Below the pieces are notes generated by a model. That model was not told where the DNA came from, searched no databases, and saw nothing but the letters and a program-made list of their open reading frames with translations. A stretch of 64,000 bases of DNA from positions 914,139 through 978,138 of the forward strand of contig OZ007507.1 of the NCBI GenBank assembly GCA_963931865.1, given 5' to 3'. Below, in pieces: positions 23,047 to 53,503 of the stretch (within the stretch, counting starts at the first letter, position 1; each line of letters starts with the position of its first letter). The translations under genes and the position numbers were made by a program. The DNA is from Axinella damicornis. Lineage: Eukaryota > Porifera > Demospongiae > Axinellida > Axinellidae.

Positions 23047-24536
23047 TTACCACTCTGCCCATGTGTGCACATCCACAACATGTAGAATTCCACACAGGGC
23101 ATCTTCAAACAGCTTGTATGTGTTCCGATCTTGAACTACTGCATGTTCTGCCAACTCGAATATCTCTTGCCATGAACGACCACAATCATTCCAAAACTGC
23201 TTGATCTTCTTCAAGCCTTCTACTTTCATTGTACTTGCAATCATGTGCGGTGGTGGTTTGAAGAGAATACGGTAGACAGTACGGGCTAATGCATGAAGGT
23301 CGTCGTTAGGACGAACAACCAGCACATGTTTCCCGTCAATCAGCAATGCCAAAATGTGATCAGAAGCTTCTGCAATCACTCCCTCATACGAAATGCACTC
23401 ACCAACACTGCATGAAGACCCCCAGTCATTGAGCAGCACCTCATGCTTAGTTACTGCATAGATGTTTGCACTACGAACGTCACGGTGCACGATATCACAA
23501 CAGTGTGCTTGGTGTAGGGTCTCCACCATCTGTTGTATGTGAAGGGGAGCCAAGAAAGGGCCAGTTTCTCCAACAGAAACAAAAGATCTCGCAAGCGGTG
23601 TTAACAGCAATGCGTTGCCTGTAACAGCATTAATGCTTGGGATATGCAACACCTTGAACCTCCTCAACTTGCTCAGCATCCTCTCCTCATGGCTCAGCCT
23701 TTCAAGATCCTTAAAGACTTTTACAACCAAAGTCCTTTCACCCAGTTTCCCCTTGTACACAAAACCTGAAAGTCCATTACCAAGGACACCTTGTAACTCA
23801 ACCTTGCCTTGTTCTACCACCACAAGAGATGGTAGATGGTAATGAAGTTCAGTCAGAGACATGGAAGCCAGGCATGATACTACCTTGGCAGCTTGCACTC
23901 CAGAATCCGTGGTGTTCCATGACACATCAAGAATCCAGTCGGTGTGTATGGCATCCTTCGTGCGTGTTGCAATGACAAGATGCAGTGAGATATTATCAGT
24001 TAGAAAGCCATACACGCTGGTGCGGAATGGCTGCTCCTGAAGCACCAATTGTAGGTACTTTTCAAGATGCCCTCTAGCTCCATCATCAATCTCATCTTTC
24101 CCCTTCAGTTCACCGACTACAACAATGTTGAAAGGGGAGACAGACCCATCCGATGTCAGTAAAATAACATCTGGGGAATTCTTACCCAGAATCTTTCTAG
24201 CATGTGAGTCGAGAAATCGAACTTGTGCATGATTTTCCCGTAACATTACGTTCCACTCTTGAATCTTTCCCGACCAATAGGGCTGAACGATCGTACTCTC
24301 GAGGCCTGTAGGTAGTACACCAAAATGTAGCTCATATTCAAGCGAGTTGAGGTTTTTCTGGAATGCACGACCCACATCCTGATTACACACAGAGAGATTC
24401 GCAACTTTCCGGGATTTATAGTATTCAGCATATGATGTGGTAGATAGTGTTTGACGTGCCCCAAGTTCCCTTTGGCGTTCACTCAATTCCAAATTCTGCA
24501 CTCGGTGTACTAATTCGTTCACCAAACTGTGTGGTT
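23047..24536 (-). CDS. Nuclease-kinase effector exon, copy 2 (intact C-terminus)
   Basis: Opens after the acceptor TTTGTCCTTTGTAG at 24,550-24,537 and runs to a TAA at 23,049-23,047. Same architecture as copy 1: PD-(D/E)xK nuclease region (SPDVILL, VVGELKGK), then kinase with GNGLSGFVYKG, VVKVFK, HRDVRSAN, NDWGSS and NDDLHAL. It ends FEDALCGILHVVDVHTWAEW. It differs from copies 1 and 3 at roughly 15-20 residues, none in catalytic motifs, plus one extra residue (HVLVVRP versus HVVVRP). Phase 1 at the acceptor matches the phase-1 donor of the header exon at 28,814-28,550 on the same strand; a 4.0-kb intron would separate them. I infer one three-exon gene, 28,978 to 23,047. Head-plus-effector organisation is as in Crinkler-type proteins. 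Confidence 0.83.
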
Positions 24537-24550
24537 CTACAAAGGACAAA

Positions 24551-25758
24551 TAGCATACATACGTGTATAATATACTATACACACTGTAAATACATTATTA
24601 CACTGGTAGGAATGCAACATGGTGAGGTTGTGCATGGGTATGTCGGTATTTCCCGAGCCGAAGACAAGTGTGACCTTGTAGATACCTGGGCAGACTCTGC
24701 TGGTATCCACCAGCTCATCAAGCCTCGTTCATATACGGATCATCCCAATTAACACAATGTCACATGATAACCATACTGCTCGTGTTGAGTGGGCAATGGT
24801 GGCCAGAAGGAAGACAAAAAAAAATTATTACAGGGCTCACAACTTCACCATCAGGGTGACTTTCGGCACATAAGTGTCAGTGCACGATGACAATTATGGC
24901 AGTGTAGTCAGTGGGCCTTTCCTGAAAGATGTGAAAGTCAGTTAGCGCTCGAGCAATGGCAGTCAACAGGAAGACAAAAGTGCTCATAACTCCAATACCA
25001 AGGTGACTTTCAGTACCAAAATTATACGTTTGGGTCAGCGCACAACAGTGATCATGACGGTGTAGTCAGAATCTTTGTAGGCCATTCCTAGTAGTCAAAC
25101 AATTGCTTAGTACCGTATTTCCGCGAATAGACGCCGCGGCATTCATTTGTTTTGTTGTTCAGTTTGGTGGGGCGACTATTCGAGGGCGGCGTTTATTACT
25201 TTGGGCAGTATGACTGCGCCACGTACACAGCATCCCTAGCTAGCTCCCCGTCGAATTGTGTCGACAAGCTGGTGAGAAGGTAGGAAAATTCGGTCGAGAA
25301 ACACAAAACAACAACTCACAATGGGCAAGATTCAGCTGTGGCCGGAGCACTGAGTGCTTTGAATAGCCATCGCTTTTCGACAAAGCGATACCGTGCACAC
25401 GGGATAAGGACGATGGTGAAGATGCCTTCACGGGATGCATATGGAGGGGGATGACGACGAGCTCGAGACTTTTCTACGACTGTTGGAAGACGTACAAAGT
25501 GTCCACGTTGTATCGTCATACTTTGCGCACGTGCTAACCTGCCACGGTGTTTATTTCACTCAGCGCCTCCAATTGTGCGGCATTTGTTCGAGGGCGGCGT
25601 CTATTCGTGGAAACACTCCGACTTCTGTGGTAAATGTTGTGTGAGTTACAAATCAGTCACAATATTACTCTTCGTTTTCAAGGCATCCCTGGCTTTATCG
25701 TGTGGAATGTTGGAATGCAACTTGTTTCAGATATAATCACATACTTATAGAGTTGCCA
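24551..25758. other. Upstream intron region of effector copy 2, with dispersed repeat modules
   Basis: Mirror of 1-1,208. Holds the same modules as the left arm. Lies inside the inferred intron between header exon 2 and the effector exon. Confidence 0.5.
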
Positions 25759-26522
25759 TACATTAACTCCCGTAGAAAAGCGTGCAATTTTTCCCCAAAT
25801 TGCATGGTTATTGTAGCCCGAGGGCTGTCAGAAATTGCACGGTTATGAAGCGGCTGCGGCGCGCGCCAACCAATCAGGTCAAGCTCCACCCTAGCAACGA
25901 GCGTCCGCGTCATGGCTACGCCTCGTTTTCATTAGCAACAGTTGAAAATGGCTGTACTGTGTGAACGCTCGCGTTGTTTAAGCTTTCTGTACCTGAGCGC
26001 TCGAGCTGAAGAAATGCTATGAGAACCGAACGATAGCGTGGCGAAAGTGTTGTCACAGAAACGGTGGCTCTAGTCATTGTGCCATACTAGCGCTGCAGCC
26101 GTACTGTTCGTGGCTCAGTGTTATGCGCACACAGGCTCTGTGCTGCTGTTATGGGACCCTGGGTGTCAGTTGCAACACCGCACTTCCGTCCTAAAGCTTC
26201 ACTACACAACAGGTCAGTACTCTGGGTAAATAAGATAAGCGGTACTGTACTAGTAGCGTGTAGTTCTGAGCTAGCTAGAGCTCTATGGCTACCTCGCGCT
26301 TGCGGAAAGTTTCTTGATCTGCTGTTATGATGTATGCGTTCATTTATAGAACACCGGCAGTCGGAGTAGAAGGCACGCCAGGCTGGGTACGACCTTGTTC
26401 ATTCAACGCAGAGCAATGATTGGCTACTCTGAAAGCACCAAGAAGAGAGTGGGTTCGTCCCAGGTACGTTGTACACTCAGTAAGTGCTCACTGCGGTCAT
26501 ACTGTCCTCACTAGGTTCCGGC
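25759..26522. other. Outer part of the second inverted repeat
   Basis: Matches 33,173-33,947 in reverse. Contains open frames of 60-70 codons on both strands (for example 26,118-26,330 +) whose protein is near-identical to the other arm, but with no splice or family support. Could include regulatory sequence. Confidence 0.35.
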
Positions 26523-26639
26523 AGCACACGGAACACAGTTGCAGGTTTTCTTTGAGAGGGTTGTTCAAGTGTTCAGGCCAATAACTTGGAGGCTCCACCC
26601 CCAGTAATATCAGAGAACACGGTAGCGTTCTCTATTTAG

Positions 26640-27330
26640 GAATGGCTAAGGAAATTTCGAAATACCATACTGATGCACCAGCAGGAAAACGGCCAAAGAA
26701 GCTACTACCCCTCAAACCAAGCATGCAGACAGAATGATACTGCCTAGCAGTTCACAAAAACACTCACAAACGTACCCTAGAGTACGCGGGAGTCGAGTAA
26801 TAAGTCGCCGTAAAATTCCAATTTCGTCATCTTCTTTCTTTCTTTCTTTCTTCTTCTTCTTCTTTCTCATTGACTAGCATAGCTGGACAACAAAAGCATT
26901 TCCTGAGCTAGTTCACTCACAGAACAACATCGCTTTCGTCGTAGTAGCTCCTTTCGGCCCTTTTCACTACATACTGGCAAGAACGGCACTGCTGGCTAGC
27001 TACGATTCCGTGAATTGCTAGCACAAAGCCATTTTGATGCAACCAGAGGTCACGCGTGTCAAATGCGCACGCGCAGTTCACATGCAAACGCACGTTGCAT
27101 TCAGCATTTTGGGCGCTTGGTGATCAGCTGAATCCTTGTGAATCCATCATCTGGTGCCTCACTACCACTGCGAGGAATTTCTACCAACCTGTTCTTGCCA
27201 AGATCTATCGTGACTATGCCATCATGGAGGCGTGGCTTTCTTTTCATGAGGTACATGTAACTACAGTGGAACATGTATATACCATGCACCAATACTGTGA
27301 GTGAGGCTAGAGTTTTGGAATACTCATATT
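26640..27330. repeat. Duplicated block X (paralogue at 47,965-48,600)
   Basis: Shares long collinear stretches with 47,965-48,600: GGAAAACGGCCAAAGAAGCTA, the CTAGCAGTTCACAAA segment, a pyrimidine microsatellite (26,829-26,870), and GGCGTGGCTTTCTTTTCATGA. Starts with an open reading MAKEISKYHTDAPAGKRPKK on + that ends at TGA after about 36 codons. Similarity continues past 27,330 into 49,290-49,380, across a TTAA element inserted only in the other copy. Meaning unknown; it sits beside a header gene in both places. Confidence 0.55.
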
Positions 27331-27439
27331 ATTAGTGGAAATAGAATGAACCATCAAAGCCTGCTCAGTACCCAGCAGAAGGTTCACATCCATCAAGGCA
27401 ATTAATAAAATCTAACATCGCATTCCATGCACTCAAAAA

Positions 27440-27715
27440 ACCTCACAAACTAGAAACAAAAAATTTTCTTACAAAAATTAAAACGATTTAGTGATGGCCA
27501 CCCCGATCGACTCCCGAAAAAGCAGACAAACAAGGAATGCCATTAACCAGCCCCAGTCCCATCCCATCCCTAAATTCTACATTTTTCAATGGGATGGGAC
27601 TGAGGCTGGTTAATGGCATTCCTTGTTTGTCTGCTTTTTCGGGAGTCGATCGGGGTGGCCATCACTAAATCGTTCGTAATTTGTGTAAGAAATTTTTTTG
27701 TTTCTAGTACATGTA
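27440..27715. repeat. Foldback with about 120-bp arms
   Basis: 27,450-27,565 and 27,590-27,710 are reverse complements, joined by a short loop containing TTCTACATTTTTCAATGG. Typical phrases: CACCCCGATCGACTCCCGA and its complement. A diverged single arm recurs at 47,225-47,370. Probable non-autonomous element. Confidence 0.7.
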
Positions 27716-27870
27716 GCAGTAAGCAATGGTCTCCCAGTCTACTCCTATCAAGGGCGCATCGAGCCGCCGAAGGCGGCGAGAGGGCATGCAACTTCCTATA
27801 GCGCACGTATAGACGGCATAGTGCTGAGTGTTACTAAAAATAACGTTTCCGGTTAAGCACGTGAAATTGC

Positions 27871-28549: not shown

Positions 28550-28978
28550 CATCATCTTGTGGCAGCTCAAGAAGGAAACAGTTGGCCATGTTGTTACCAT
28601 GACCACGCTCTAGCTCATCTTTGATCAAGGTTTCAGCAAGTACTTCTCCATCACGAAACTTCACAGTCACCTTGTCAGGAGCAATGTCAAGCAGCTTCGC
28701 CTTGACAAGGGCAGTTTCCAGTGCATCCAACACATCATCATCAGGCGATACTCTGACGTGGATTGGATTCCTACCCTTTTCATTCACACGAAACCAGACC
28801 TTCACTTCATCCATCTGGAATGTTAGAGGTGGGTGAATAAATCCACGAGATGGCCACAACACAATTAGGTGGTGAAAAATCTAGACATTACGACTCAATA
28901 GGGCAGGTGCGGCTGGACAAGGACATAACTTATAGCGTAACTTACCCCCACTTGTGGTACGGTTTCGTCCGTGTTCAT
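28550..28978 (-). CDS. Header gene 2: two exons encoding a ubiquitin-like CRN-type N-terminus
   Basis: Exon 1 at 28,978-28,946 encodes MNTDETVPQVG with donor GTAAGT in phase 0. Exon 2 at 28,814-28,550 follows the acceptor CATTCCAG and reads MDEVKVWFRVNEKGRNPIHV onward, with DVLDALETALVKAKLLDI, VTVKFRDGEVL and a final LLELPQDDG; it ends in phase 1 (donor GTAAGA). The alternation of hydrophobic strands with one helix, closing in L-L-E-L, fits a beta-grasp (ubiquitin-like) header as in Crinkler proteins. A clear paralogue is 46,773-47,007. The next phase-1 acceptor of a large exon on this strand is effector copy 2 at 24,536. The joining is inferred; a transcript would be needed. If unspliced, the ORF stops shortly after the donor. 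Confidence 0.75.
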
Positions 28979-29159
28979 TGACTGAGTTGGAAGGTAAGTA
29001 CACCAACAGTACTATACAATCTACAAACGGTGGGCAAGACGGCAAGAGCAGGGCACTCGAGAATGGGGCGGCAGCACTTTGACATTTGAAAACAATTACC
29101 TTCCGACCACGTGACTGATTACGTAAAGCATGGCATGCACCTATTCCGCATTACGTAAC

Positions 29160-31488: not shown

Positions 31489-31756
31489 ATGGAAGACCTG
31501 TACGTGCTTGTTGCAGAACGTGAAGGAGCGGATCCCCTCGAAGTAGATGCAATTGAGGGAGTAATCTCTTTGTCGACCTTAAGGTCTCAATTTGGCCCAG
31601 ACGCTGCCGGCTTACAGTACCGAAATATCGCCACCAATCGTTGGCGAGCTGTGGCAGTAGACGCGGAGACCCTAAGGCCACCTGCTGGAGGATGGATGGA
31701 CCGTATATACATCCTGAAGCGATTTGCTCCCCACATGGCGGCCGAGAAAACAGACA
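31489..31756 (+). CDS. Header gene 3: single exon, CRN-type N-terminus
   Basis: Starts MEDLYVLVAEREGADPLEVD, continues ISLSTLRSQFGPDAAGLQY and a WRAVAVDAETL strand, and ends DRIYILKRFAPHMAAEKTD before a donor GTGAGT in phase 1. Length of 89 codons and strand-helix-strand pattern fit a small ubiquitin-like header, but its sequence is only distantly similar to headers 2 and 4. I prefer the ATG at 31,489 to an in-frame GTG at 31,471. The next large phase-1 exon on this strand is effector copy 3 at 35,173, leaving a 3.4-kb intron. Joining is inferred. Confidence 0.6.
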
Positions 31757-33172
31757 GTGAGTTCATAAATGTAGCTAATTTCACACCTAGTGAAAGGCTA
31801 ACGGGGGCATCTCCAAATCCACTCTTCTCCAGATAAATATGCCCGAGGACATTACTCCCTCCCTCCCTCCCTCCCTCCCATATTGTCAAGACAGTTGGTG
31901 TTCTACTGTACTTTTACCAAGACTTGCAAATTTTGAAGTGAAATCTGTTAAACCGCAAATCCGTTTAATAACCGGAAGTCGTATGCTTCCAAATCACGCA
32001 GCTGCTCTACAGTCGATTTCCGTTGCGTTTTTGCCCGTTTCACGATGGCAGAAGGGACTACAAGCTGCGAGCCAGGTTGACGTTCGGCCTATGACGAAGA
32101 CCTCCGATGGCGTGGTGTATACCAGCGTTTCGAGAAATAGCTGCCAATAGCCCGAAGTTGTAGCTAGCTAGCTAGCTACACGTTGTGCGTGCGGAGCGTG
32201 GTTGGTGGCTCCATGGATACAGGAGGCTCCGTCTCCTCCTCGGCCGTCTCTGGTAATTCCACAGTGTAGTTGTCAGACTAGCACAGTGCCACAGTCGTAG
32301 GTCCAAAGTTACCGCAAAAACTAGCGCTTCTGGCTACCGTGAAATGTTATTCATAGCGAGTTTTAGGCGGGAAACCGCAGCCGCCTAGGCCACATCAAAA
32401 TAAAACGCTTTTCACTCGTCGCTCTGCGCTCAGTTGTTGCAAGGTTTAGTAAAAGTACAGTACTAACCTGTTGAACAATAGCGTTTCTGTAGTAGCCTCG
32501 TTCCCAGGCCCCCTATCCGAAAATCGGAAAGGGGCCTGGTAGCACTTCCATGCAATTTCTGTCGACTATGCCTCACAAATTCAAGAGGAGCCAATCAGAT
32601 TTCAGAATGAAACCACACGCAAACGTGATCCCTTCACGTGAGACAAAAGTGTTGACTAGTATTATAAAGCACAAAACGGACCATACAGATCGTTAGAGAG
32701 CTTACTTTGCCACTCCAGACTGCGGCGTCCTCGTCACTTTCCTTCGTGAAGAAGTGCTGTTGCGTTTGCGGGAGATGGCTGGACGATCGAAATCAGAGAG
32801 CGCTGTTTACGCTTACCGGGCATCGCGACAAAGCTATTGTCCCTCTGCTGCGCTCGCCCCGGGGCCATTGTCCTGCTGTGCACGCCCTGCAGCCATTGTC
32901 CCAGCGGCGTGCGTGCTTGGATGACAATGTGTCATTGATGGGTTTCCACCAAGCTTCGCCTTCTACTTTAACCTCTATTAGACTCCTTCAAATAGGCTTT
33001 ACGCGACACAAAACAACCGTGCTGGCACGGTTTAGTATTGTTCGGCACAGTTATTAAATTGCCATGTAAACACTAACTAAACTGTACTGGACCATAAATA
33101 ACCGTTCTTGGACCACCTTATCTTGCCATGCCAGCACGGTTAGAACCGTTCTGGTTGCGGTCTCAATCCAGT
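31757..33172. other. Inferred intron of header 3/effector 3, repeats and an open frame
   Basis: Contains a (CCCT)n microsatellite near 31,855-31,880, a truncated 9-bp-family end at 32,493-32,539 (TAGCCTCGTTCCCAGGCC with its partner cut short), and a 117-codon open frame at 32,707-33,057 (+) with a C-x2-C start (KKCCCVCGRWLDDRNQ) that may be transposon-derived. Short hairpin AACCGTGCTGGCACGGTTT at about 33,018-33,036. Confidence 0.4.
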
Positions 33173-36100
33173 ACCGGAACCTAGTGAGGACAGTATGACC
33201 GCAGTGAGCACTTACTGAGTGTACAACGTACCTGGGACGAACCCACTCTCTTCTTGGTGCTTTCAGAGTAGCCAATCATTGCTTTGCGTTGAATGAACAA
33301 GGTCGTACCCAGCCTGGCGTGCCTTCTACTCCGACTGCCGGTGTTCTATAAATGAACGCGTACATCATAACAGCAGATCAAGAAACTTTCCGCAAGCGCG
33401 AGGTAGCCATAGAGCTCTAGCTAGCTCAGAACTACACGCTACTAGTACAGTACCGCTTATCTTATTTACCCAGAGTACTGACCTGTTGTGTAGTGAAGCT
33501 TTAGGACAGAAGTGCGGTGTTGCAACTGACACCCAGGGTCCCATAACAGCAGCACAGAGCCTGTGTGCGCATAACACTGAGCCACGAACAGTACGGCTGC
33601 AGCGCTAGTATGGCACAATGACTAGAGCCACCGTTTCTGTGACAACACTTTCGCCACGCTATCGTTCGGTTCTCATAGCATTTCTTCAGCTCGAGCGCTC
33701 AGGTACAGAAAGCTTAAACAACGCGAGCGTTCACACAGTACAGCCATTTTCAACTGTTGCTAATGAAAACGAGGCGTAGCCATGACGCGGACGCTCGTTG
33801 CTAGGGTGGAGCTTGACCTGATTGGTTGGCGCGCGCCGCAGCCGCTTCATAACCGTGCAATTTCTGACAGCCCTCGGGCTACAATAACCATGCAATTTGG
33901 GAAAAAATTGCACGCTTTTCTATGGGAGTTAATGTATGGCAACTCTATAAGTATGTGATTATATCTGAAACAAGTTGCATTCCAACATTCCACACGATAA
34001 AGCCAGGGATGCCTTGAAAACGAAGAGTAATATTTTGAATAGCGTGACTGATTTGTAACTCACACAACATTTACCACAGAAGTCGGAGTGTTTCCACGAA
34101 TAGACGCCGCCCTCGAACAAATGCATGCCGCACAATTGGAGGCGCTGAGTGAAATAAACACCGTGGCAGGTTAGCACGTGCGCAAAGTATGACGATACAA
34201 CGTGGACACTTTGTACGTCTTCCAACAGTCGTAGAAAAGTCTCGAGCTCGTCGTCATCCCCCTCCATATGCATCCCGTGAAGGCATCTTCACCATCGTCC
34301 TTATCCCGTGTGCACGGTATCGCTTTGTCGAAAAGCGATGGCTATTCAAAGCACTCAGTGCTCCGGCCACAGCTGAATCTTGCCCATTGTGAGTTGTTGT
34401 TTTGTGTTTCTCGACCGAATTTTCCTACCTTCTCACCAGCTTGTCGACACAATTCGACGGGGAGCTAGCTAGGGATGCTGTGTACATGGCGCAGTCATAC
34501 TGCCCAAAGTAATAAACGCCGCCCTCGAATAGTCGCCCCACCAAACTGAACAACAAAACAAATGAATGCCGCGGCGTCTATTCGCGGAAATACGGTACTA
34601 AGCAATTGTTTGACTACTAGGAATGGCCTACAAAGATTCTGACTACACCGTCATGATCACTGTTGTGCGCTGACCCAAACGTATAATTTTGGTACTGAAA
34701 GTCACCTTGGTATTGGAGTTATGAGCACTTTTGTCTTCCTGTTGACTGCCATTGCTCGAGCGCTAACTGACTTTCACATCTTTCAGGAAAGGCCCACTGA
34801 CTACACTGCCATAATTGTCATCGTGCACTGACACTTATGTGCCGAAAGTCACCCTGATGGTGAAGTTGTGAGCCCTGTAATAATTTTTTTTTTGTCTTCC
34901 TTCTGGCCACCATTGCCCACTCAACACGAGCAGTATGGTTATCATGTGACATTGTGTTAATTGGGATGATCCGTATATGAACGAGGCTTGATGAGCTGGT
35001 GGATACCAGCAGAGTCTGCCCAGGTATCTACAAGGTCAGACTTGTCTTCGGCTCGGGAAATACCGACATACCCATGCACAACCTCACCATGTTGCATTCC
35101 TACCAGTGTAATAATGTATTTACAGTGTGTATAGTATATTATACACGTATGTATGCTATTTATCCTTTGTAGAACCACCCAGTTTGGTGAACGAATTAGT
35201 ACACCGAGTGCAGAATTTGGAATTGAGTGAACGCCAAAGGGAACTTGGGGCACGTCAAACACTATCTACCACATCATATGCTGAATACTATAAATCCCGG
35301 AAAGTTGCGAATCTCTCTGTGTGTAATCAGGATGTGGGTCGTGCATTCCAGAAAAACCTCAACTCGCTTGAATATGAGCTACATTTTGGTGTACTACCTA
35401 CAGGCCTCGAGAGTACGATCGTTCAGCCCTATTGGTCGGGAAAGATTCAAGAGTGGAACGAAATGTTACGGGTAAATCATGCACAAGTTCAATTTCTCGA
35501 CTCACATGCTAGAAAGATTCTGGGTAAGAAATCCCCAGATGTTATTTTACTGACATCGGATGGGTCTGTCTCCCCTTTCAACATTGTTGTAGTCGGTGAA
35601 CTGAAGGGGAAAGATGAGATTGATGATGGAGCTAGAGGGCAGCTTGAAAAGTACCTACAATTGGTGCTTCAGGAGCAGCCATTCCGCACCAGCGTGTATG
35701 GCTTTCTAACTGATAATATCTCACTGCATCTTGTCATTGCAACACGCACGAAGGATGCCATACACACCAACTGGATTCTTGATGTGTCATGGAACACCAC
35801 GGATTCTGGAGTGCAAGCTGCCAAGGTAGTATCATGCCTGGCTTCCATGTCTCTGACTGAACTTCATTACCATCTACCATCTGTTGTGGTGGTAGAACAA
35901 GGCAAGGTTGAGTTACAAGGTGTCCTTGGTAATGGACTTTCAGGTTTTGTGTACAAGGGGAAACTGGGTGAAACGACTTTGGTTGTAAAAGTCTTTAAGG
36001 ATCTTGAAAGGCTGAGCCGTGAGGAGAGGATGCTGAGCCAGTTGAGGAGGTTCGAGGTGTTGCATATCCCAAGCGTTAATGCTGTTGCAGGCAACGCATT

Positions 36101-36735
36101 GCTGTTAACACCGCTTGCGAGATCTTTTGTTTCTGTTGGAGAAACTGGCCCTTTCTTGGCTCCCCTTCACATACAACAGATGGTGGAGACCCTACACCAA
36201 GCACACTGTTGTGATATCGTGCACCGTGACGTTCGTAGTGCAAACATCTATGCAGTAACTAAGCATGAGGTGCTGCTCAATGACTGGGGGTCTTCATGCA
36301 GTGTTGGTGAGTGGATTCCGTATGAGGGAGTGATTGCAGAAGCTTCTGATCACATTTTGGCATTGCTGATTGACGGGAAACATGTGGTTGTTCGTCCTAA
36401 CGACGACCTTCATGCATTAGCCCGTACTGTCTACCGTATTCTCTTCAAACCACCACCGCACGTGATTGCAAGTACAATGAAAGTAGAAGGCTTGAAGAAG
36501 ATCAAGCAGTTTTGGAATGATTGTGGTCGTTCATGGCAAGAGATATTCGAGTTGGCAGAACGTGCAGTAGTTCAAGATCGGGACACATACAAGCGGTTTG
36601 AAGATGCCCTGTGTGGAATTCTACATGTTGTGGATGTGCACACATGGGCAGAGTGGTAACAACTTGTATTTTATCACCGAGTTACAACCTATGTAGCCTA
36701 CATGATGTATACCTAGAAAATTAATTGGCAATTGC
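33173..36735. repeat. Second inverted repeat, arm 2 (effector copy 3)
   Basis: Third copy of the effector segment, in the same orientation as copy 1. Similarity ends abruptly at about 36,735, where the sequence switches into a 21-bp satellite, whereas copies 1 and 2 continue into their shared 3' flank. This copy is closer to copy 1 (about seven amino-acid differences over the shared effector exon) than to copy 2. Confidence 0.92.
35173..36659 (+). CDS. Nuclease-kinase effector exon, copy 3 (intact)
   Basis: Opens after the acceptor TATCCTTTGTAG and ends at TAA 36,657-36,659. PD-(D/E)xK motif: SPDVILL near 35,530 and GELKGK near 35,596-35,612. Kinase motifs: GNGLSGFVYKG near 35,930, VVKVFK, HRDVRSAN near 36,222, NDWGSS near 36,278, NDDLHAL near 36,400. 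DWG replaces the usual DFG; the aspartate is kept, so activity is possible. C-terminus is FEDALCGILHVVDVHTWAEW, as in copy 2. Acceptor phase 1 fits the header exon ending 31,756. The family role (a Crinkler-type nuclear effector) is known for relatives; cellular role in this animal is unknown. Confidence 0.85.
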
Positions 36736-38715: not shown

Positions 38716-38888
38716 CCTTGCTAGCTAGTTAACTGTACGGATCACGTTATCCACTTCGACGTCACAAGTGTACAAACATAATCGAACGTCCACGGTGCCG
38801 GTGGAATTCCACCGCTAGTTAGCGCATGCGCAAACAGTGGAAACCAGGCCCTTTTCTCCTCGCCGTCTCGGGCCTGGGAACGAGGCTA

Positions 38889-39752: not shown

Positions 39753-39815
39753 TGCATATGGGGGCGGGGATGATCACGTGATCCGTCCAATCGTTTCCTT
39801 ACTTTGATCGTGTTT

Positions 39816-44170: not shown

Positions 44171-44917
44171 ACCCTTTGTACGCATATATGCGCACATAAA
44201 CGATCACTTAGCAACGATACGTAATTATTACTCAAGATCGCTGAATTAGAAACACAGCAGGGAAGATGCGAGAATCGTGTCAGGTGTTGTCATGTTGGAA
44301 GTGTAATATACCAAGGCAAGGGCATAGGTGCCTGTGAAGTCACTGACTTCTGCTTAAGTATGTGCCTGCTGCTAAAATTTTTTACATGAACAAGTAATAA
44401 AAAACATTGAAAATGTAACGATGTAGGGATACCAGAACGGCAAAAAGTAAGGAAACAAGGGAGGGATGATCGAACATAACAGTGATGTATACAATACCCC
44501 TTCATTATACACGTATATGGAAGAAGATCTCTGTAGGGGGGGTTGTATACTTCACTGTTTTGTGCGATCGTCCCTGCCTTGTTTCCTTACTTTGTATATA
44601 TAGTATGTGACAAAAAGCTGGGGAGGACACCCTCTCTGAAGCTGTGTAATTGATTTGGCTTGAGGTTTATGAACTGTGGGTGACAATGTACATGTATCCC
44701 TTGGGAAAAGATAGGTGTTGGTAGTAATGTGGTCAGATGCATTCCCTTCCAGCTGGTGCTGCTGTGATGTCATAGCTTTGTCACATGAATATTTGGACAT
44801 GATTGCTGCAACTTGCCACTTTACTTGTACTGCCTGCCCTGGCGCCACCGCCTCAGACTCCTCCCCAGCATGTTTTGTACATGTTCAATGGTGTAGTGTC
44901 TTGCTGCTGTCACTTAA
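44171..44917. other. Intergenic, nothing recognised
   Basis: AT-rich sequence with short unrelated open frames on both strands; no family, splice or repeat support. Confidence 0.4.
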
Positions 44918-45513
44918 GGTTACGAGTTACAGTTTGCTATTGAGCATGCGTGGTGCGCGCTTGCGGTTTACAGTCAACAGTGGAATGTGCGCGCGACTTT
45001 GGCGTCAGTTTTTTTATTGCTGAAGCTACATCTAACCGTATATTAGGCTAGACTTCAATTCTACGAAGAAAGGGGCAGGGCGGCTCGAATAGTTTTACCG
45101 AGATAAACATCCTGTTCGTGAGATACTGCATGTGCGCCTGATCAGGTGAAAAGCAAATGGCTTTGTGGTATGAACGACGATTACTCGTTTTTCCAATGGC
45201 AGCGAAGCGAACTTGCTCCGAGCCGCCCTCCAGTCAGTTGAAAACTTCCCATGGATGCTGCCAAGCTGGCCTGTTAGCTCTTTCTGATTGCAAAATCTGA
45301 CGCCAAAAATCGCTAACTCGACCTTGAACTTGGATGCCACTGCCCATGTTGGCATGTTGTACTCAGGCGCTAAGATCATACCAGCTAGAAGGTACTCATA
45401 TTGCTGTTATACCTCGTTTTTGTTGTGTGTCTCTGGCTAGTTCCTGCACGGAGGGACAAATGTAACTTGTAGTATAATATGTATATTTAACGAGCACACA
45501 GTATCCCGTAACC
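44918..45513. mobile_element. TTAA-flanked element A (596 bp)
   Basis: Flanked by TTAA at 44,914-44,917 and 45,514-45,517. Ends GGTTACGAGTTACAG and (reverse complement) GGTTACGGGATACTG. A minus-strand frame at 45,095-45,379 starting MILAPEYNMPTWAVASKFK is open but unrecognised. TTAA target duplication is typical of piggyBac and Kolobok superfamilies; no transposase present. Confidence 0.7.
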
Positions 45514-45844
45514 TTAAGCAAACCTTTTCCAGAATCAGAATTGTCCTCCCACATGTATGTGTATGTTGTGACTTCTTGCAGTGCCTTCCCGAGAGCCTAC
45601 TACACCACTGCCTCGTCTCTTTCCTGAGGGCCACCCACCATTGTCACTCCAATGGACGTGCAGACTACCAGTAAAGTACCACCTAAGAAGGAGGTACTGT
45701 AACGTATGGTATATGCAACTTGCTTGAAAGCATATTCTAACACCTTGCCCTCCAAAATGCTCGTATGCTACAGTTCACAGAGAATTTGAAACCTAATGGA
45801 GTTAGAAGACATAAGAGGATGAGCATGCAGGTGGGGTTTGGTCT

Positions 45845-45869
45845 GGGGGGGGGGGGGGGGGGGGGGGGT
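45845..45869. repeat. Run of 25 G
   Basis: Uninterrupted poly-G on the + strand in otherwise unremarkable intergenic sequence. Confidence 0.95.
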
Positions 45870-46174
45870 GCATGTCCATGTTGCGTGCAAGCTGAGATTG
45901 GTGCCTAGCACTTAAGCAGTGGCAGGTAGCTGGCTAAGCTGAGAGCTATACCACAAGTTTTGACGGATTCGGAGTGGTGGTTTCCGGAAGATAGCTACAT
46001 GTACATTCCCTGAAACTCCCGGCAGTGCTGGAGAGCTTGCCGTGGAGAAGAGGACTGGGCGGGGTATTGGTGAATGCGTGGAACAACATGGCACTGCGAG
46101 ACTACTCATGACAGCGGGAGTGTCCCCCATGATTATCGTGGCAGGACAAGATCAGGGGCAGCCAAGAACGGTGG

Positions 46175-46585
46175 TGCACGTCCCCGTCGGTCCTCAACCC
46201 TGAATGCAGCGTACCTGTACGCACGTCCCCATTGGTCCTCAACCCTGAATGCAGCGTACCTGTACGCACGTCCCCGTCGGTCCTCAACCCTGAATGCAGC
46301 GTACCTGTACGCACGTCCCCGTCGGTCCTCAACCCTGAATGCAGCGTACCTGTACGCACGTCCCCATCGGTCCTCAACCCTGAATGCAGCGTACCTGTAC
46401 GCACGTCCCCGTCGGTCCTCAACCCTGAATGCAGCGTACCTGTACGCATCTCCCCGTCGGTCCTCTACCCTGAATGCAGCATACCTGTACGCACGTCCCC
46501 GTCGGTCCTCAACCCTGAATGCAGCGTACCTGTACGCACGTCCCCGTCGGTCCTCAACCCTGAATGCATCATACCTGTACAGATA
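46175..46585. repeat. 45-bp minisatellite open in several frames
   Basis: About nine copies of a unit with CACGTCCCCGTCGGTCCTCA then ACCCTGAATGCAGCGTACCT. The 15-codon unit keeps + and - frames open (RPRRSSTLNAAYLYA on +), but stops follow immediately and no splice links it to the header exon 190 bp downstream. Confidence 0.9.
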
Positions 46586-46772
46586 AATGCATGACTCCTG
46601 TAAGCCTGGTTCCCTCATTAGAACAGTCCTGCTGAGTTCATGGGTGATTTATCCTTGTTACTGCCACAGTGTGTTCTAGTCTCTAGATTTTTTGCTTTCT
46701 AAGGATGCAAGCTGTCAAATATTGTGGTGTGGCTGATTTCATGGATTTATTCACCCATCTATCACATTCCAG

Positions 46773-49700
46773 GTCTGGTGTCGTGTGGATGAGCCTGATA
46801 GGAACTCAGTCCTTGTGGTGATTCAGCATGATGCTGTGGTTTATGTTGCAATGGTGGCTGCCCTTAATCTTGAGAAGCTTGACCACATTGCGCCTGGCCG
46901 CGTGCTGGTAAAGTTCAATGGGAAGAAATTACGCCCTGGTGCCCGGATAAGTCAACTCAACACCTCTGATGACAATCCACTGTTGCTTGAGCTGCCTGAA
47001 CCTGAAGGTAAATTGCAGGCAGTGATGTGCATGTGATGTACATTCACGGTTGTACCTGTGCTTGTAGTAGTGTTGTGAACCTGTAGCCAATAATTGATTA
47101 TTGACCAGTTACTGTAGTTACACTGCCAGTCAATTATTGGCTGACTATTCAGTTATTGGGGTGAGCCTGAGCGAGCCCCACATAGACGAGTTAGATGCGA
47201 ATTTTCCATACATGTATATGTTTCTTTATTATACTAGTGGCAAAAAATTTTCTGCGAAAAATAAAAAGGATTTAGTGATGGCCTGTCACATTCGGAATTA
47301 TTCCACCCCTCGAAAAAGCTGAGAAACAAGGAGAAATGCCTTTAACCAGGCTCAGTCCCATCCGTTAAAAAATGTATGGAGGGGACAGCCGTTGTGCTGT
47401 TGTCGAGAGCGGCGAATGTTGAAAGTACTTGGGCTAGAGATCGCTTGAATGGCGTTTCTGTACCAATGTCGGTAGCACTCATCTTCCCTGCCCAAGGAAT
47501 AAGTTCCGTTGAACGCTAAAAGGGGCAGGGCGGCTCGAATAGTGCAGATAAACGCTCCTTTCTGCACTATTTGTCATGTAGCCCTACCTTCAAGTAGTCA
47601 GCAACATCCCCTAACCCCCGAAACATCGGAAGGGCGGTGGACTTCTTCATTATTCCGGTATTGCCGTAAATTGTTGTTTTTCGAAGTTGGAGATGGCTGA
47701 AAGGTTCTTAGAAGCTACGAAGGAGTGTCATCAACCGACAGCAAAGTAAGTCCTCTTTACGAGCTGTTTCAACTGAGCTGTTTTTGACTCCTCGATCGAT
47801 CGGTGACGTAACCCACAATAATTAGTAGTAAGTTACGCGCGCACTCTTTGATTTCATTGGCCATCTCAAATTCCAGATGGGAAATGTGTTAGTGACAAGA
47901 AATCACACTCAAAACACCAGACCTTCTCCGCGGGGGCGCGCGTGAAGGGCTGGGCACGAGACTAACTGATACACTAGCAGGAAAACGGCCAAAGAAGCTA
48001 CAAAGCCCCAAACCAGGCAGAATGGCACTGCCTAGCAGTTCACAAATGCACTCGAAAACGTACCTTAGAGTATGCAGGAGTCGAGAAACAAGTCACTGAA
48101 AAGGTCCGATTTCGTCATCTTTCTTCTTTCTTCTTTCTCATAGTCAAGCATAGCTCACCAACGGAAGCAGTCCTTGAGCTCATTCACGCACAAAACAACA
48201 CCGCTTCGCGTCTTTGAGCCCTTTTGTCTGCGAACTGGCAAGAACCACAGTTTTGGCTAGCTACGATTCTATGAAATTCTAGCACGACGCCATTTGAGGC
48301 GACCAGAGGTCTTGAGTTAAGTCAAGAGCGCATAAGTAGTTCAGGCTCCCAATTGCACATGTGCAATTCACATGTTTGCGCATGTTGTTCTTGTGACGGC
48401 TGCGTTTGAGACACTTACTGAATCCTTGTAAATCCGTCATCTGGTGGGGTGGCTCACTACCGCTGAGAGGTGTTTCCATCAACGTGTACTTGTCAAGATC
48501 CATTGTGACTGTGCCATTATGGTGGCGTGGCTTTCTTTTCATGACGTAGCTACAGTGCAGATCATGTACCAGAACTGTGAGTGAGGCTGGAGTTTTGAAC
48601 TTAAGGTTACGGGATCCCTGCGTGCGGATACGCGCACCGTATACTTAATTAAGCGCTATTTCACAGTTTTTTTGTCGCCAAAAATAAAGCCGTGTGATCC
48701 GACCTGGACTTGGAAGACCGTGTTGAAATAGGCACAAACAGTATAGAAAGGGCCGGACGAAGCGTTTTTGTAAATACTGATGACCGTTCCGAAGTTTTAC
48801 AACGCTGTATTCCAGAGAGGGGAGTCAAGATGGCGGTTATTCGCACTCAAGAGTCGTTCTTTCGAGGACTGCTCAACCTAGCCACAAAACGCTTACGTCC
48901 CGCCCTAGAGCTTCCTATGGCGTGTCTCCCAACAGTAGAATCGAGTTGCTCGCGGTCTTCGCACTGGAGATTTTTGGCGAATAGTTTGCTGGAATTGATT
49001 AACCAGCGTACAACAGGTACAGTGTGAGCTACTGTAATGATGATTAGTCTGCATGTTGACTACCTTCCCTGCTTTGTGTCGAGTAAGTTTGATTTCACTA
49101 GCTTACTTTCTGTGCGAGAAAAATGGGGTTGAACAAATTGTCTGGCCACGCCCACCGCGCAGGGATTCCGTAACCTTAAACATGACCTATAATTATGACA
49201 ATCATCGAGCTCTCTGATCTGATGAAGGGTGAATGCCCCACCCCCTCCCAAAGACTATAAACATTGATCACAAGAGCAACATGCATACAACAATATTATT
49301 AATGGAAACAGAATGAAGCATCAAAGCCGACTGGCTTGATGCTCAGCCACATCCATCACTGCCGTCATGAGAGACTGTCGTAGCTTTCCTTTGTTGGCAT
49401 GGTGATTAGGTAACAACACCTTCAAATCTGACATCAAGGCATATATCCAGTACCCCCGTACCCTTATGGTGATGTTGCACACTAATAAACTGAATTACGA
49501 CCATCAAGGGAAGCCTGTGAGCAGTCAAAGATGAATCCCTGCCAACTGTGCTTGGCTCTGACGGGAACAACAGATTTTAGTTAGCAAGGAAACAGACTGG
49601 TCAACTTTTCTAGCAGCTTCAATTCACCAATAGCAGAAGTATCAGTAGCTGTTGAATCATAGGCTCTTTTGGCCTGCTCGGTAATTTCTTCCAAAGGAGA

Positions 49701-52700
49701 CCGCTTAAGGCTGTAGCCCTTGTGCTTAGAGAAGTCCAAACTGGTTGTAGATACAATAGGCTGTTGACACTTGACAGGACAGCAACATCTTCAGGACTTG
49801 AAATTTCCAAGAACACTGGGAGACATCTCAACAGTCAACTGCAACGGTGAGCAACTTGAATAAGCATGTTTAGCTACACGGAAAAGGGCTGAAGTTTGAG
49901 TGAGTCCTGTCTAGTAGTCCTGTCCAGTGAATAGACACTACTTGCTTGCGCTATATAGCGCTAGCACTATAGCTCGCATGCGCGTTACGTTACTATACAC
50001 GAGACCACGTGCAAGCACTTCCATTTCAATTCATTACCAATTTTCCGTTTCCGTTTTCCGTTTCCGTTTCCGTTTCCGTTTCCATTTCGGAACTCCGATA
50101 TGATATAGGAGCTCCTATTTACTATATCGGACCTCCTATATGATATAGGAGGGGTCCGATATGATATAGGAGCTCCTATTTACTATATAGGACCTCCTAT
50201 ATGATATAGGAGGGGTCCGATATGATATAGGAGCTCCTATTTACTATATCGGACCTCCTATATGATATAGGAGGGGTCCGATATGATATTGGACCTCCGA
50301 TATGATATAGGAGCTCCTATTTACTATATCGGACCTCCTATATGATATAGGAGGGGTCCGATATGATATAGGAGCTCCTATTTACTATATAGGACCTCCG
50401 ATATGATATAGGAGGGGTCCAATATGATATAGGACCTCCGATATGATATAGGAGGTGTCTGATATGATATCAGACCTCCTATATGATGTAGGAGACCTCC
50501 AATATGATATAGGACCTCCCATTTACTATAATAAGAATGTGCTATTTATAAGTATGATGTTCTATATGTACACTGAAAAGCTGCAGTAATGATAATGGAA
50601 TTTTGACTCATTTGGCCCCCCATAAGAGGCGCGCTGGATCTGGCCGGCCACCGAAAGTGACAGCAGAAATTAAACGGCTTGTAGAAGAACAAATGTGCCT
50701 GGATGATGAGACCACTGCAGTGCAACTCCACCGCCTCCTACAAAGCAAGGGTCACAATATACCTATAAAGACTGTTCTACGTTGTCGATCGTCCCTTGGC
50801 TGGACGTTCAGGGGAAGCGCCTATTGTCAACACATTCGCGAGGCCAACAAGGTGAAGCGGTTGGCTTGGGCTCGTGAGCACCTACATGACTCGTTCGACG
50901 AAGTGATCTGGTCAGATGAATCGAGCATACAAATGGAGTCTCACCGCCGATTTTGCTGTCGAAAGCGTGGAGAAGCCCCAAGACCTAAGCCGAGGTATGT
51001 TTTATGTGATGTACACAGACAGGCTTCTCTGTGATTGTATGAGACATGGCGCCTTATAGATACTATTGCTTGTCTCCCCTCTCCCCCCTAGGCACAAGCA
51101 CCCCACAAAGGTCCACGTGTGGGCTGGAATCAGTTTGAAAGGCAGGACTGGCATTTGCATTTTTGAGGGGATAATGAAGAAAGAACTGTACACAGAGATC
51201 CTTGACCAGACATTGCTCCCCTTCATTAGAGAGACCTTCCCCCGGAGTCACAAATTCATGCAGGACAATGACTCGAAGCACACTTATGGGTACGCACAGA
51301 AATGGATCACAGACAACCATGTCAATTGGTGGAGAACTCCAGCGGAATCACCAGACATGAATCCAATAGAGAATGTTTGGCATGAACTGAAAGAGTACAT
51401 TCGCCGTGAAGCCAAGCCTAAAACAAAGGAGCAGCTGATCAATGGAATTTGTGCATTTTGGGATACAGTTGATGTACGAAAGTGCACAAAGTACATCCGC
51501 CACTTGCGCAAAGTAGTACCTAAGGTTATCGATATGGATGGAGCTGCTACTGGTTATTAGTCACTTTATTTGTTGTAACATGCATGCATGTGTTGATTGC
51601 CTGTTAAGAAAATAATCATAAATCTTTAACATGTTTATACGAGGGGCAACCGCACTCCTGGTAGCCGCGATGCAACCGGTTGCAACTCACTGGGTGGTCA
51701 TAGTCTTTGTGGCAATGAAACTTTGAAAGTTGAAGAGAGCGCTCAAAGTTGAAGTCCATCTTGGTTCTATGGTGTGAATCATTCTGTTCCATTTCCACTT
51801 AGAGGGAAGTAGATCTCCACCAGTAGACTCTGGTTAGCCTCGTTCCCAGGCCTACCCCGTTTTTTCTGTTCTTCGGTTTCTTTTGACAATAATACACGGG
51901 CATATGCGGAAGGGCGGCGAAAAATGCGGGAAGGCCTGGTATCATTCATCACGTGAGTGACGTCAGGTGGACGCAAGGGTGGACGTAGGGGGCGGGGCCC
52001 TTAGTCGTTTCAGCAGATCCTGAGGGCTGTTCATCATCCAGTCGGCTCGGTTCGAACACTCCGCGGCTAGTCGGGACTCACAGACGATCTACACAACTTC
52101 TTGGGCACTTTTTAAACTTATTTGCGGTTGGGGCTGGGTGTGGCCCAACTGCAAATAAGTTTAAAAAGCGCCAACCGCAAATAAGTTTAAATGGCGCCCA
52201 AGAAGTTGTGCAGATCGTCTGCTGAAACGACTAAGGGCCCCGCCCCCCCTACGTCCACCCTTGCGTCCACCTGACGTCACTCACGTGATGAATGATACCA
52301 GGCCTTCCATGTTTTTCGCCGCCCTTCCGCATCCGTGTAATAACCAAAGAACAGAAAAAACGGGGTAGGCCTGGGAACGAGGTTAGACTCTGGTAGTACA
52401 TGACCATCTGTTCTCTTTTGTTTTTACAGAACCACAGAACAAGAAAATGAAAACAGGTATGGTTTCTTGGGAACTGTAGCCACACGTATTATTATGTAAT
52501 ATTATGTACATGTAGTACATGTGCATGTTAGCATGTCATTGACCAAGCTAATGTAATTTTATTTGCACCCCTAGCAACATGCTATGTTGTGGATGCTTAC
52601 ATCCCAAATGACAAACGAGGGGTTGGTACACGAGCAGCAGTTTACCAGAAAGCAGAGGAGTGCTTTGCATTCTTTGTTCCAGGGACAGACTACATCTGGT

Positions 52701-53503
52701 ATGGAGAGCCTGGTGGTGATCCAGATCGTTCTAGCAACACACTCTGCATTCACCTTTTCTTCGAGGAGAAGAGTCATGCAATGTCATTTCAAGCAGCATT
52801 AAGGAACTGGAAATTTCACAATCCTTTCATCCCCTTTGACCAGCCTGTTGTATCTGATCTGAGAGAAGACCATGAAGAGAAACTTAAACCTGTAAAATTT
52901 ATGGACTATATAGGTGCAGACTCTGACTCACCCTGTATGTCTCTTGAACAGTATAAAGCGTGTAACTTAACACTTTCTTCAGCAACGTCTGTTGACGGCT
53001 TAGACACACCACTTGTCAAGTACCAGACCATTGAACATCCTGGACTGTTTGTTAACGCACTTCCTTACCGTACCCATCTTAAGGACAAGGCAAAGTGCAA
53101 GGACAAGGATCTGAAGAAGGACGAAAACAATATGCTTGCAGGGAGCTGGCTATTCCAACAGTTATTTGATGGAATGTGTACATCTGAAGGTGAAGGTGTT
53201 CCTCTCCTTCGAATTTCCTGTCTTCATGTTTCAGAACAACCTGAGGAACTAAATGCTGGGGAGGTACGTCGACGTGTAGATTTGAAGATCGAATATCTTA
53301 CACCAGGAGCTGCTAATGAAATGTCAAGTCGTCTCAAGCAAGGTTCTGAACAACTACAATCAGCAAGTCCTGATGACATACCTGCGTGGAAGACTTGGGT
53401 CTACGTCAATGACCATGTAAAATTTTGTGAGTGTCTACAATGGAAGGCTGAAGATACCGCTAAAAAATGGGTGCACCATCAAGCCGAGCTGGATGCTGTA
53501 TAG
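46773..53503 (+). CDS. CRN-type gene 4: header plus an unrecognised effector
   Basis: Three exons: header 46,773-47,007; linker 52,430-52,456; effector 52,575-53,503. Every join is phase 1 (EPEG| then EPQNKKMKT| then ATCYVVDAY..). The header (VWCRVDEPDRNSVLVVI, RVLVKFNGKKLRPGARI, LLLELPEPEG) is a clear paralogue of header 2 but begins directly at the acceptor without an ATG, so a first exon is missing or unseen. The 309-codon effector has segments such as AFFVPGTDYIWYGEPGGDP, LFFEEKSHAMSFQAALRNWK and DDIPAWKTWVYVNDHVKFCE. I do not recognise a fold; it shows no kinase or nuclease motif and no membrane segment. The 5.4-kb first intron carries a TTAA element, a palindromic satellite, a Tc1 gene and a 551-bp foldback. 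Function unknown. Confidence 0.7.
47215..48600. repeat. Duplicated blocks paralogous to 26,640-27,960
   Basis: 47,225-47,370 matches one arm of the 27,440 foldback. 47,400-47,520 is an inverted, diverged match to 27,880-27,960. 47,965-48,600 matches block X. Also 47,520-47,545 (AGGGGCAGGGCGGCTCGAAT) recurs at 45,070-45,095. A short reading MAERFLEATKECHQPTAK with a donor GTAAGT lies at 47,692-47,745, without further support. All lie in the inferred first intron of CRN-type gene 4. Confidence 0.5.
48605..49175. mobile_element. TTAA-flanked element B (571 bp)
   Basis: Flanked by TTAA (48,601-48,604 and 49,176-49,179). Ends GGTTACGGGATCCCTGCG and, reverse complement, GGTTACGGAATCCCTGCG. It interrupts block X relative to the copy at 27,310-27,330. 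A 105-codon + frame (48,710-49,027) inside has no recognised family. Confidence 0.8.
49180..50085. other. Intron/intergenic, little recognised
   Basis: 49,290-49,380 continues block X similarity. The rest is unique. At 50,040-50,085 a short TTTCCG repeat precedes the palindromic satellite. Confidence 0.4.
50090..50532. repeat. Palindromic satellite, 62-bp units
   Basis: Units alternate GATATGATATAGGAGCTCCT and TATCGGACCTCCTATATGAT, so each unit is partly self-complementary and the array is rich in cruciform-forming sequence. About seven units; diverges toward the right end. Confidence 0.9.
50603..51560 (+). CDS. Tc1-like DD34E transposase, two exons, 5' end missing
   Basis: Exon A runs to 50,994 and exon B from 51,092 to 51,560. 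They lie in different frames and are joined across a 97-bp GT-AG interval. Visible: second helix-turn-helix region (RRAGSGRPPKVTAEIKRLVE), the catalytic WSDES, FMQDNDSKHT and SPDMNPIENVWHELK, with 34 residues between the second D and E. All three acidic residues are kept. The open frame begins with a TTG, and the first helix-turn-helix plus an ATG are absent: a 5' exon is lost or lies beyond the palindromic satellite. No terminal inverted repeats were identified. It sits in the first intron of CRN-type gene 4, same strand. Possibly still recently active elsewhere in the genome. Confidence 0.82.
51636..51720. repeat. Dispersed repeat end, shared with 59,335-59,425
   Basis: CGAGGGGCAACCGCACTCCT here is the reverse complement of AGGAGTGCGGTTGCCCCTCG at 59,401-59,420. 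Both are followed by an ACCGGTTGCAA palindrome-like core. End of an uncharacterised element. Confidence 0.65.
51835..52385. mobile_element. 551-bp foldback element of the 9-bp-TSD family
   Basis: Ends TAGCCTCGTTCCCAGGCC and, in reverse, TAACCTCGTTCCCAGGCC. Arms of about 180 bp pair almost perfectly and the middle is also self-complementary (GACGATCTACACAACTTCTT and its complement). Flanked by GACTCTGGT at 51,826-51,834 and 52,386-52,394, an exact 9-bp duplication. It ends 45 bp before the linker exon of CRN-type gene 4. Confidence 0.93.

What the first reader, a model, noticed from the sequence alone, without database searches (positions are those of the whole stretch)
23047..53503. Modular header and effector exons with one shared splice phase: a CRN-like combinatorial system in an animal-type genome
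Seen: three small header exons (28,814-28,550; 31,489-31,756; 46,773-47,007) all end in phase 1. Three large or linked downstream exons (24,536-23,047; 35,173-36,659; linker 52,430) all open in phase 1, and their first bases are nearly the same (AACCAC), reading E/K-P. So any of the headers could be spliced in frame to any of the effectors. Two effector types are present: nuclease-kinase and an unrecognised one of about 309 codons. Known: Crinkler-type proteins pair a ubiquitin-like header with nuclease/kinase effectors. Inference: exon-level mix and match, aided by the duplications, could generate new header-effector pairs.
Basis: partly seen in the sequence, partly recalled or inferred. Interest (0 to 1): 0.86.

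Follow-up and report, generated by a model that had tools for sequence, protein, structure and literature searches.

The report
Nuclease gene parts reshuffled inside introns
In a genome that is likely from an animal, one and the same block encoding a predicted DNA-cutting and kinase enzyme sits behind four different short "header" exons, joined each time inside the predicted intron between them, and some of these headers and enzymes have changed their amino acids faster than chance would give, which likely reflects an arms race.

Summary
The exons and splice phases are as described. The best reading is a family of Crinkler-RHS-like (CR) genes built from exchangeable exons: UBL-like header, basic linker and effector, meeting at predicted phase-1 splice sites. 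Genome-wide, 10 of 10 full-length UBL-like header exons have a phase-1 donor, and nine of them precede five effector types: REase-kinase e, an HNH-like e3, an NTPase, and two more kinase-bearing types.

Exchange is visible in the DNA. The e block lies behind four headers, and all four block 5' edges fall in the header-effector intron. The h1-e1 intron is a chimera with its join at 26522|26521: one side matches a different effector's gene, the other the e block. One header exon is itself a mosaic: two segments with two forms each, all four combinations at four loci. Codon models find omega above 1 in three h1-type headers (3.84) and in the e copies (4.45), but not in h3-type headers, e3 or RK2.

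Corrections: header 2 is not Crinkler-like but a TDP-43 N-terminal domain. Pfam's Crinkler header matches nothing in the genome above its cut-off. Headers cannot mix freely by cis-splicing, because the genes lie on both strands. No transcript was seen, so all splicing is predicted, most weakly h2-e2.

The parts
28946..28978 (-). Candidate exon 1 of the h1-e1 gene (MNTDETVPQVG), phase-0 donor GTAAGT
   Evidence: similar short candidate first exons, picked by eye, before the C5, C7 and C1 headers
28550..28814 (-). Header h1 (ubiquitin-like family), phase 0 in, phase 1 out
26522..27748 (-). Header-side part of the h1-e1 intron, matching the header-RK2 intron at C7 (92.1% over 1,248 columns) and, in pieces, at C5
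26521..26522 (-). Recombination join: RK2-type intron ends, e block begins
23047..24536 (-). Effector exon e1: DUF6826 (REase-like by eye) plus protein kinase, phase-1 acceptor
   Evidence: Pfam of the near-identical e2
31489..31756 (+). Header h2: TDP-43 N-terminal domain, phase-1 donor
32830..36734 (+). e block copy behind h2; both edges differ from the other copies
35173..36659 (+). Effector exon e2: DUF6826 plus protein kinase, phase-1 acceptor
1224..2686 (+). Effector exon e0, third copy; its last codons are displaced by an insertion, and the original end matches at 2813-2884
46773..47007 (+). Header h3 (mosaic form A1-B1), phase-1 donor
44829..49491 (+). h3-type header block, matching in pieces at 96-98% the block before the e effector at C3:908076; shorter parts lie before the NTPase at C8 and e3 at C3:890083
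52430..52456 (+). 27-nt linker exon, phase 1-1, EPQNKKMKT
52575..53503 (+). Effector e3 main exon, HNH-like by eye, phase-1 acceptor
54009..54665 (+). Decayed remnant of an e effector (77% identity, stops inside), downstream of e3

Best explanation
These are modular genes, likely of an animal, in which a short header exon, often a short basic linker exon, and a predicted nuclease or kinase effector exon meet at predicted phase-1 splice sites, and in which the DNA shows that headers were paired with new effectors by joins inside the predicted header-effector intron. Shown in the sequence: one e-effector block behind four different headers, one header family before five effector types, a chimeric intron with a mapped join, a mosaic header exon, and an excess of amino-acid changes in three h1-type headers and in the e copies. 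Inferred: because the donors and acceptors are phase 1, any join in the intron keeps the reading frame, so swapping is nearly free of cost. Inferred: the proteins have no secretion signal that I could see by eye and carry KKxK- or KKPR-like linkers, so they would enter the nucleus and cut nucleic acid under control of the kinase or NTPase part. Inferred: the header would bind a fast-changing partner, either an invader's product or a self-inhibitor, that decides when the nuclease is active. The TDP-43 N-terminal header would instead trigger it by head-to-tail polymerisation. I commit to an intracellular defence or conflict nuclease family as the most likely role.
For: Same effector, different headers: the e block (97-99% alike in the six pairwise matches) follows h1, h2, an h3-type header (C3:908076) and a fourth header (C3:3892787); 4 of 4 block 5' edges lie in the intron.

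Same headers, different effectors: h3-type before e3 (twice), e and the NTPase; h1-type before e, RK2 (C5, C7) and RK3 (C1). The C7 header is itself intermediate: h1-like at its start, h3-like at its end.

Join: at 26522|26521 the h1 intron matches C7 and C5 up to 36 bp before their linker exon, then switches to the e block, which in the other three copies runs on further upstream.

Effector displacement: a decayed e tail follows e3 at both e3 loci, and a 158-bp match (79.7%) to the e-block intron lies upstream of e3 at C3:890083.

Linkers: phase 1-1 exons at e3 (2 loci), RK2 (2 loci) and the NTPase gene, all lysine-rich.

Mosaic: 42 two-against-two sites, the first 18 of one pattern and the next 24 of the other; 0 of 200,000 shuffles were as ordered; three of the four loci have 0 of 215 differences in the adjoining intron.

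Selection: headers h1, C5, C1 omega 3.84, p 1e-4, 0 of 150 bootstraps reached the observed value (14.8; largest simulated 12.1); e copies (star of 4) omega 4.45, p 5e-4; e1 against e2 20 nonsynonymous and 0 synonymous.
Against: No transcript was seen, so every junction is predicted. Omega is not above 1 for the four h3-type headers (1.01), e3 (1.28, p 0.56) or RK2 (1.46, p 0.17); of six e pairs, two are not significant (p 0.09, 0.23) and two have omega at the bound of the fit; p values are not corrected for several tests. The star-tree models ignore gene conversion. The e-copy omega rests on few changes. Open frames in copies 1-3% apart are weak proof that the copies work. The e exon shows no lysine-rich linker. 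The main acceptors of RK2 and of the NTPase were not pinned down; the candidates before the conserved part are phase 1. Nuclear entry, nuclease activity and a header ligand are untested. Misassembly of near-identical repeats cannot be fully excluded.
Confidence: 0.68

Rival explanations
1. Segmental duplications carry the effector block about the genome and land near headers by chance; most copies are dead passengers and the headers are separate small genes.
For: The e block lies within larger repeats, including an inverted duplication of roughly 8-11 kb; h2 read without splicing ends in a stop at 31836; e0 is interrupted and e remnants decay; omega near 1 for e3 and RK2.
Against: Header and effector lie on the same strand, header first, at 9 of 9 UBL-header loci where an effector was found; block 5' edges lie in the intron; omega above 1 with no stop in e1, e2 or the C3:3896350 copy argues for function.
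Confidence: 0.2
2. The genes are secreted weapons that act on other cells (rival cells, symbionts or parasites), as proposed for oomycete Crinklers, with the header as a delivery domain.
For: CR proteins with UBL headers are held to be delivered effectors in oomycetes (PMC5289972 section 11).
Against: The candidate first exons (MNTDETVPQVG, METDPPGPSGALGKE, METDPAPGPSGALGKE, MDTGATGPTVG) show no hydrophobic signal by eye; no predictor was run. The Pfam Crinkler header is absent. Fast change of the header fits recognition better than delivery.
Confidence: 0.15
3. h2 and e2 are unrelated neighbours: h2 belongs to a family of TDP-43_N genes with other downstream exons, and the e2 block merely landed in its intron or behind it.
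For: Two other TDP-43_N loci (C1, C8) share a different downstream exon (50-52% identity, phase-0 acceptor by reading), not an effector.
Against: That exon was not found in the window at E 0.05; the h2 donor is a consensus phase-1 site, and e2 is the next plus-strand frame of 150 codons or more after h2.
Confidence: 0.4

Closest known systems
CR (Crinkler-RHS-type) effector proteins
   Same: Small N-terminal header, diverse enzymatic C-termini (REase-kinase, NTPase-REase and HNH are among those listed in PMC5289972 section 11), header-effector recombination.
   Different: Likely an animal; the Pfam Crinkler header is not met; the junction lies in a predicted intron at phase 1, often with a separate linker exon; TDP-43_N as a possible header; omega above 1 in some headers.
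Oomycete Crinklers with the HVLVxxP recombination site
   Same: N-terminal part conserved, effectors linked up at a fixed junction (PMC5289972 passages).
   Different: There the junction is a coding motif; here recombination edges lie in introns and the shared phase keeps the frame.
TDP-43 (TARDBP)
   Same: h2 is its N-terminal domain; of nine interface residues named in PMC5491494 (passages), Glu17, Gln34, Asn45 and Arg52 are kept and Glu14 and Ser48 are replaced by Asp and Thr (alignment).
   Different: No RRM found near h2; Glu21 falls at a gap, Arg55 is Ala, and Asn76 lies beyond the alignment; the likely true TARDBP of this genome is on C10.
Class 1-1 exon shuffling in animal genes (recalled, Patthy)
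   Same: Modules exchanged through introns of one phase.
   Different: The header is phase 0-1 and the effector is a terminal exon; only the linkers are symmetrical 1-1 exons; the products are predicted nucleases.

Membership tests
Crinkler (Pfam PF20147) | Header matches the Pfam Crinkler N-terminal model | tested here: not met
   0 matches over the cut-off in the genome; best E 0.963 at an unrelated place; none of 10 headers hits it
CR (Crinkler-RHS) proteins | Ubiquitin-like header | tested here: inconclusive
   Profile of 10 headers against ubiquitin: P 7.1e-5, probability 62.9%. Of 10 headers, 4 have weak hits below the cut-off to families that I recall as ubiquitin-like (TUG-UBL1, CRIM, RA, RBD), 1 to DUF2604, 1 to T2SSB and 4 none.
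CR (Crinkler-RHS) proteins | C-terminus of REase plus protein kinase | tested here: met
   e2: DUF6826 41.2 bits (cut-off 26.6), Pkinase 32.0 (cut-off 31.7). That the DUF6826 region is REase-like rests on a PD...ExK-like motif read by eye
CR (Crinkler-RHS) proteins | NTPase plus REase C-terminus elsewhere in the family | tested here: inconclusive
   C8 effector: nSTAND3 E 3.7e-5 below its cut-off, RHSP E 0.19
CR (Crinkler-RHS) proteins | Toxicity or delivery into another cell or its nucleus | not testable with these tools
   needs experiment
TDP-43 N-terminal domain (h2) | Match to Pfam TDP-43_N over the cut-off | tested here: met
   64.5 bits, cut-off 27.1; PDB TDP-43 chains, best E 7.8e-9
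TDP-43 protein (h2) | RNA-recognition motifs after the domain | tested here: not met
   tblastn of a 36-residue RRM-like piece of this genome's C10 locus hits only that locus, not the window
HNH nucleases (e3) | Match to an HNH family model or solved structure | tested here: not met
   No Pfam hit; NCBIfam best E 0.17 to PriB; PDB none by sequence, best by profile E 0.014 to an unrelated Rab effector. The H...N...H pattern of the relatives is a reading by eye

The most novel reading that the evidence does not exclude
An animal runs a germ-line combinatorial repertoire of nuclear self-regulated nucleases: headers, nuclear-entry linkers and effectors are swapped through phase-1 introns, header segments are traded inside the exon, both ends change under diversifying selection, and TDP-43's polymerising domain has been recruited as an alternative trigger. 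It would be an innate immune or self-recognition system not yet described in animals.
Probability: 0.3. Interest if true: 0.88.

Novelty: new variant of a known kind. Interest (0 to 1): 0.72.

Why it matters
In oomycetes, header-effector shuffling of Crinkler-type proteins is proposed to happen at a coding motif. Here the joins themselves can be read in DNA, in what is likely an animal, which makes the mechanism (recombination in one intron of fixed phase) directly testable. Omega above 1 in headers argues that at least some headers are recognition surfaces rather than delivery tags. A TDP-43 N-terminal domain placed in front of a nuclease-kinase would be a new use of a domain that I know mainly from work on neurodegeneration.

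Tried and rejected
Rejected: that h2 is a divergent Crinkler header (P 0.53; it is TDP-43_N). Rejected: that free cis-splicing mixes the window's headers and effectors (opposite strands). Rejected: that e3 is related to e (P 0.7).

Led nowhere: Rfam and tRNA scans (none); the first pattern search (badly chosen, 1,592 hits; used only for the genome position); e3 in PDB and NCBIfam; flanking-intron divergence of h1-type headers (only 2 of 6 comparisons aligned well, 3/82 and 3/106; the rest 33-40%, so not used). The e0 rows were in the wrong frame and were replaced. P values are uncorrected. The transposase control has too few changes to be strong (first half: omega at its bound, p 0.37; second half 1.14, p 0.91).

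Not answered: the genome-wide search with the RK2 protein and with the NTPase (asked once), so their copy numbers are unknown. The e search was busy and answered.

Literature, PubMed Central open papers only: for Crinkler with sponge, one search found 0 papers, one search found 2 (both on fungi), and one search listed 15 of 5,172, none holding the word Crinkler. One search listed 12 of 5,058; only one holds Crinkler, a paper on a pathogenic fungus. One search found no paper with PF18694. These are listings, capped where said, and searches were also seen as listings only. The Zhang et al. 2016 paper itself is not held; its content is taken from the review PMC5289972 and from recall.
Full report
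Setting. The genome has what looks like a TARDBP gene on C10: a TDP-43 N-terminal domain in two exons followed by an RRM-like stretch that I recognised by eye. I therefore take it for an animal, possibly a sponge; no tool named it.

Observation. The e1 and e2 effectors are near-identical copies and a third copy, e0, lies at 1224-2686, so the shared start AACCAC of e1 and e2 is shared descent. The linker at 52430 is a 27-nt exon, phase 1 at both ends.

What the pieces are. e2 carries DUF6826 and a protein kinase, both over their Pfam cut-offs. e3 (308 codons) has no Pfam match; its relatives (3 further proteins) share an H...N...H pattern that I read as HNH-like, without support from any library. 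h1 and h3 belong to one family of 10 full-length header exons in this genome (one further hit is truncated), weakly but collinearly similar to ubiquitin. h2 is a TDP-43_N domain. This fold is ubiquitin- and DIX-like and polymerises head to tail (PMC5491494, passages). Of the nine interface residues named there, four are identical in h2, two are conservative, one falls at a gap, one is lost and one lies beyond the alignment.

Header-effector pairs in the genome. UBL-like headers were found ahead of: e (window h1; C3:908076; C3:3892787), e3 (window h3; C3:890083), an NTPase (C8:2082949, frame at 2087212), RK2 (C5:4986301; C7:12647256) and RK3 (C1:21173102). That is 9 of 10 full-length headers; for the tenth (C11) I recognised no effector among frames of 110 codons or more in the 14 kb that follow. 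RK2 and RK3 have kinase-like C-terminal parts below the Pkinase cut-off, RK3 over that of the Kdo kinase family; I call their N-terminal parts REase-like by eye only. Extra exons between header and effector encode lysine-rich peptides: EPQNKKMKT (e3), GQPRHKKQKI and GQPRCKKQKI (RK2), GELAGKKPRLEQQTEDKA (NTPase), each phase 1-1; RK3 begins ELPPPKRP in its main exon. The main acceptors of RK2 and of the NTPase were not pinned down; the candidates before the conserved part are phase 1. The h1-type genes also have similar short candidate first exons ending in phase 0.

Evidence of exchange. blastn among ten gene regions and the alignments at the edges show the e block behind four headers with different 5' edges, all inside the intron. 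In the h1 gene the intron matches the RK2 genes up to window 26522, 36 bp before the RK2 linker exon, and from 26521 on matches the e block. In the other three copies the e block runs further upstream, so the h1 gene is the derived chimera. The h2 copy begins at 32830 and ends at 36734. The h3-type header block stands before e3, e and the NTPase, its identity ending about 160 bp beyond the donor in the last case. Downstream of e3 lies a decayed e tail at both e3 loci, and at C3:890083 a 158-bp e-block intron match lies upstream, as if e3 had displaced an older e.

A mosaic header. Among the four h3-type headers the exon differs by 12-25% while the 170 bp before it has 2 variable columns and the first 160 bp after it none among three loci (C8 differs). 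The differences fall into two segments, codons 27-49 and 50-68, each in two forms, in all four combinations: A1B1 window, A2B1 C3:908, A2B2 C8, A1B2 C3:890. The 42 two-against-two sites form two unbroken runs; none of 200,000 shuffles did.

Selection. For headers h1, C5 and C1 a codon model gives omega 3.84 (p 1e-4; 0 of 150 bootstraps under omega 1 reached it), with 3 of 3 pairs significant. For four e copies omega is 4.45 (p 5e-4); e1 and e2 differ by 20 nonsynonymous and no synonymous changes, against 7 differences in about 1,900 intron bases. Of six e pairs, four are significant before any correction. The h3-type headers (1.01), e3 (1.28) and RK2 (1.46) are not different from 1. So fast change is shown for part of the family only.

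Mechanism. Because donors and acceptors share one phase, recombination anywhere in an intron of 1-7 kb makes an in-frame fusion. What drives the breaks is unknown; the h1 join has no evident microhomology. The likely role, an intracellular nuclease checked by a fast-changing partner of the header, is inference from the domain types, the lysine-rich linkers and the selection signal.

Known and new. CR proteins with UBL headers and REase-kinase, NTPase-REase and HNH C-termini are known (PMC5289972 section 11), and recombination at a fixed junction was proposed for oomycetes (same paper, passages). Membership by the Pfam Crinkler header fails, so I file this as a new variant that works like CR proteins, not as Crinklers proper. 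The mapped intron joins, the mosaic header exon, selection on headers and a TDP-43 N-terminal header appeared in none of the listings, which are capped and cover open papers only. The h2-e2 pairing remains the weakest link, since two other TDP-43_N genes run into a different exon.

Noticed in passing
window 93-11219 and 17153-25666: Large inverted duplication around a roughly 6-kb centre, with a further 2.4-kb tandem duplication inside (5418-7856 and 7858-10313).
   Followed up: partly
window 46086-46586; C3:907065-907889; C8:2081713-2082762: A 45-bp repeat array, open in several frames, sits upstream of the h3-type headers and differs in length between loci.
   Followed up: partly
window 53156-53158: e3 has Gln where its copy at C3:894403 and three relatives have His, at the last position of the HNH-like pattern.
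   Followed up: no
C1:14565337, C8:9130859, C9:12836520, C9:9072494: Further TDP-43_N exons outside the likely TARDBP locus; those on C1 and C8 share a downstream exon of unknown domain.
   Followed up: partly
window 50558-51560: Tc1/mariner-type transposase remnant in the h3-e3 intron, also present in the C3:890083 copy.
   Followed up: partly
window 55660-56478 (-): Frame of 272 codons that looks like an HD-type phosphohydrolase (recalled); no Pfam match over the cut-off.
   Followed up: no
window 38882-39754: Tandem repeats of about 21-22 bp, open in two frames.
   Followed up: no
C11:10023477: A header exon with a phase-1 donor but no recognised effector in the following 14 kb.
   Followed up: partly
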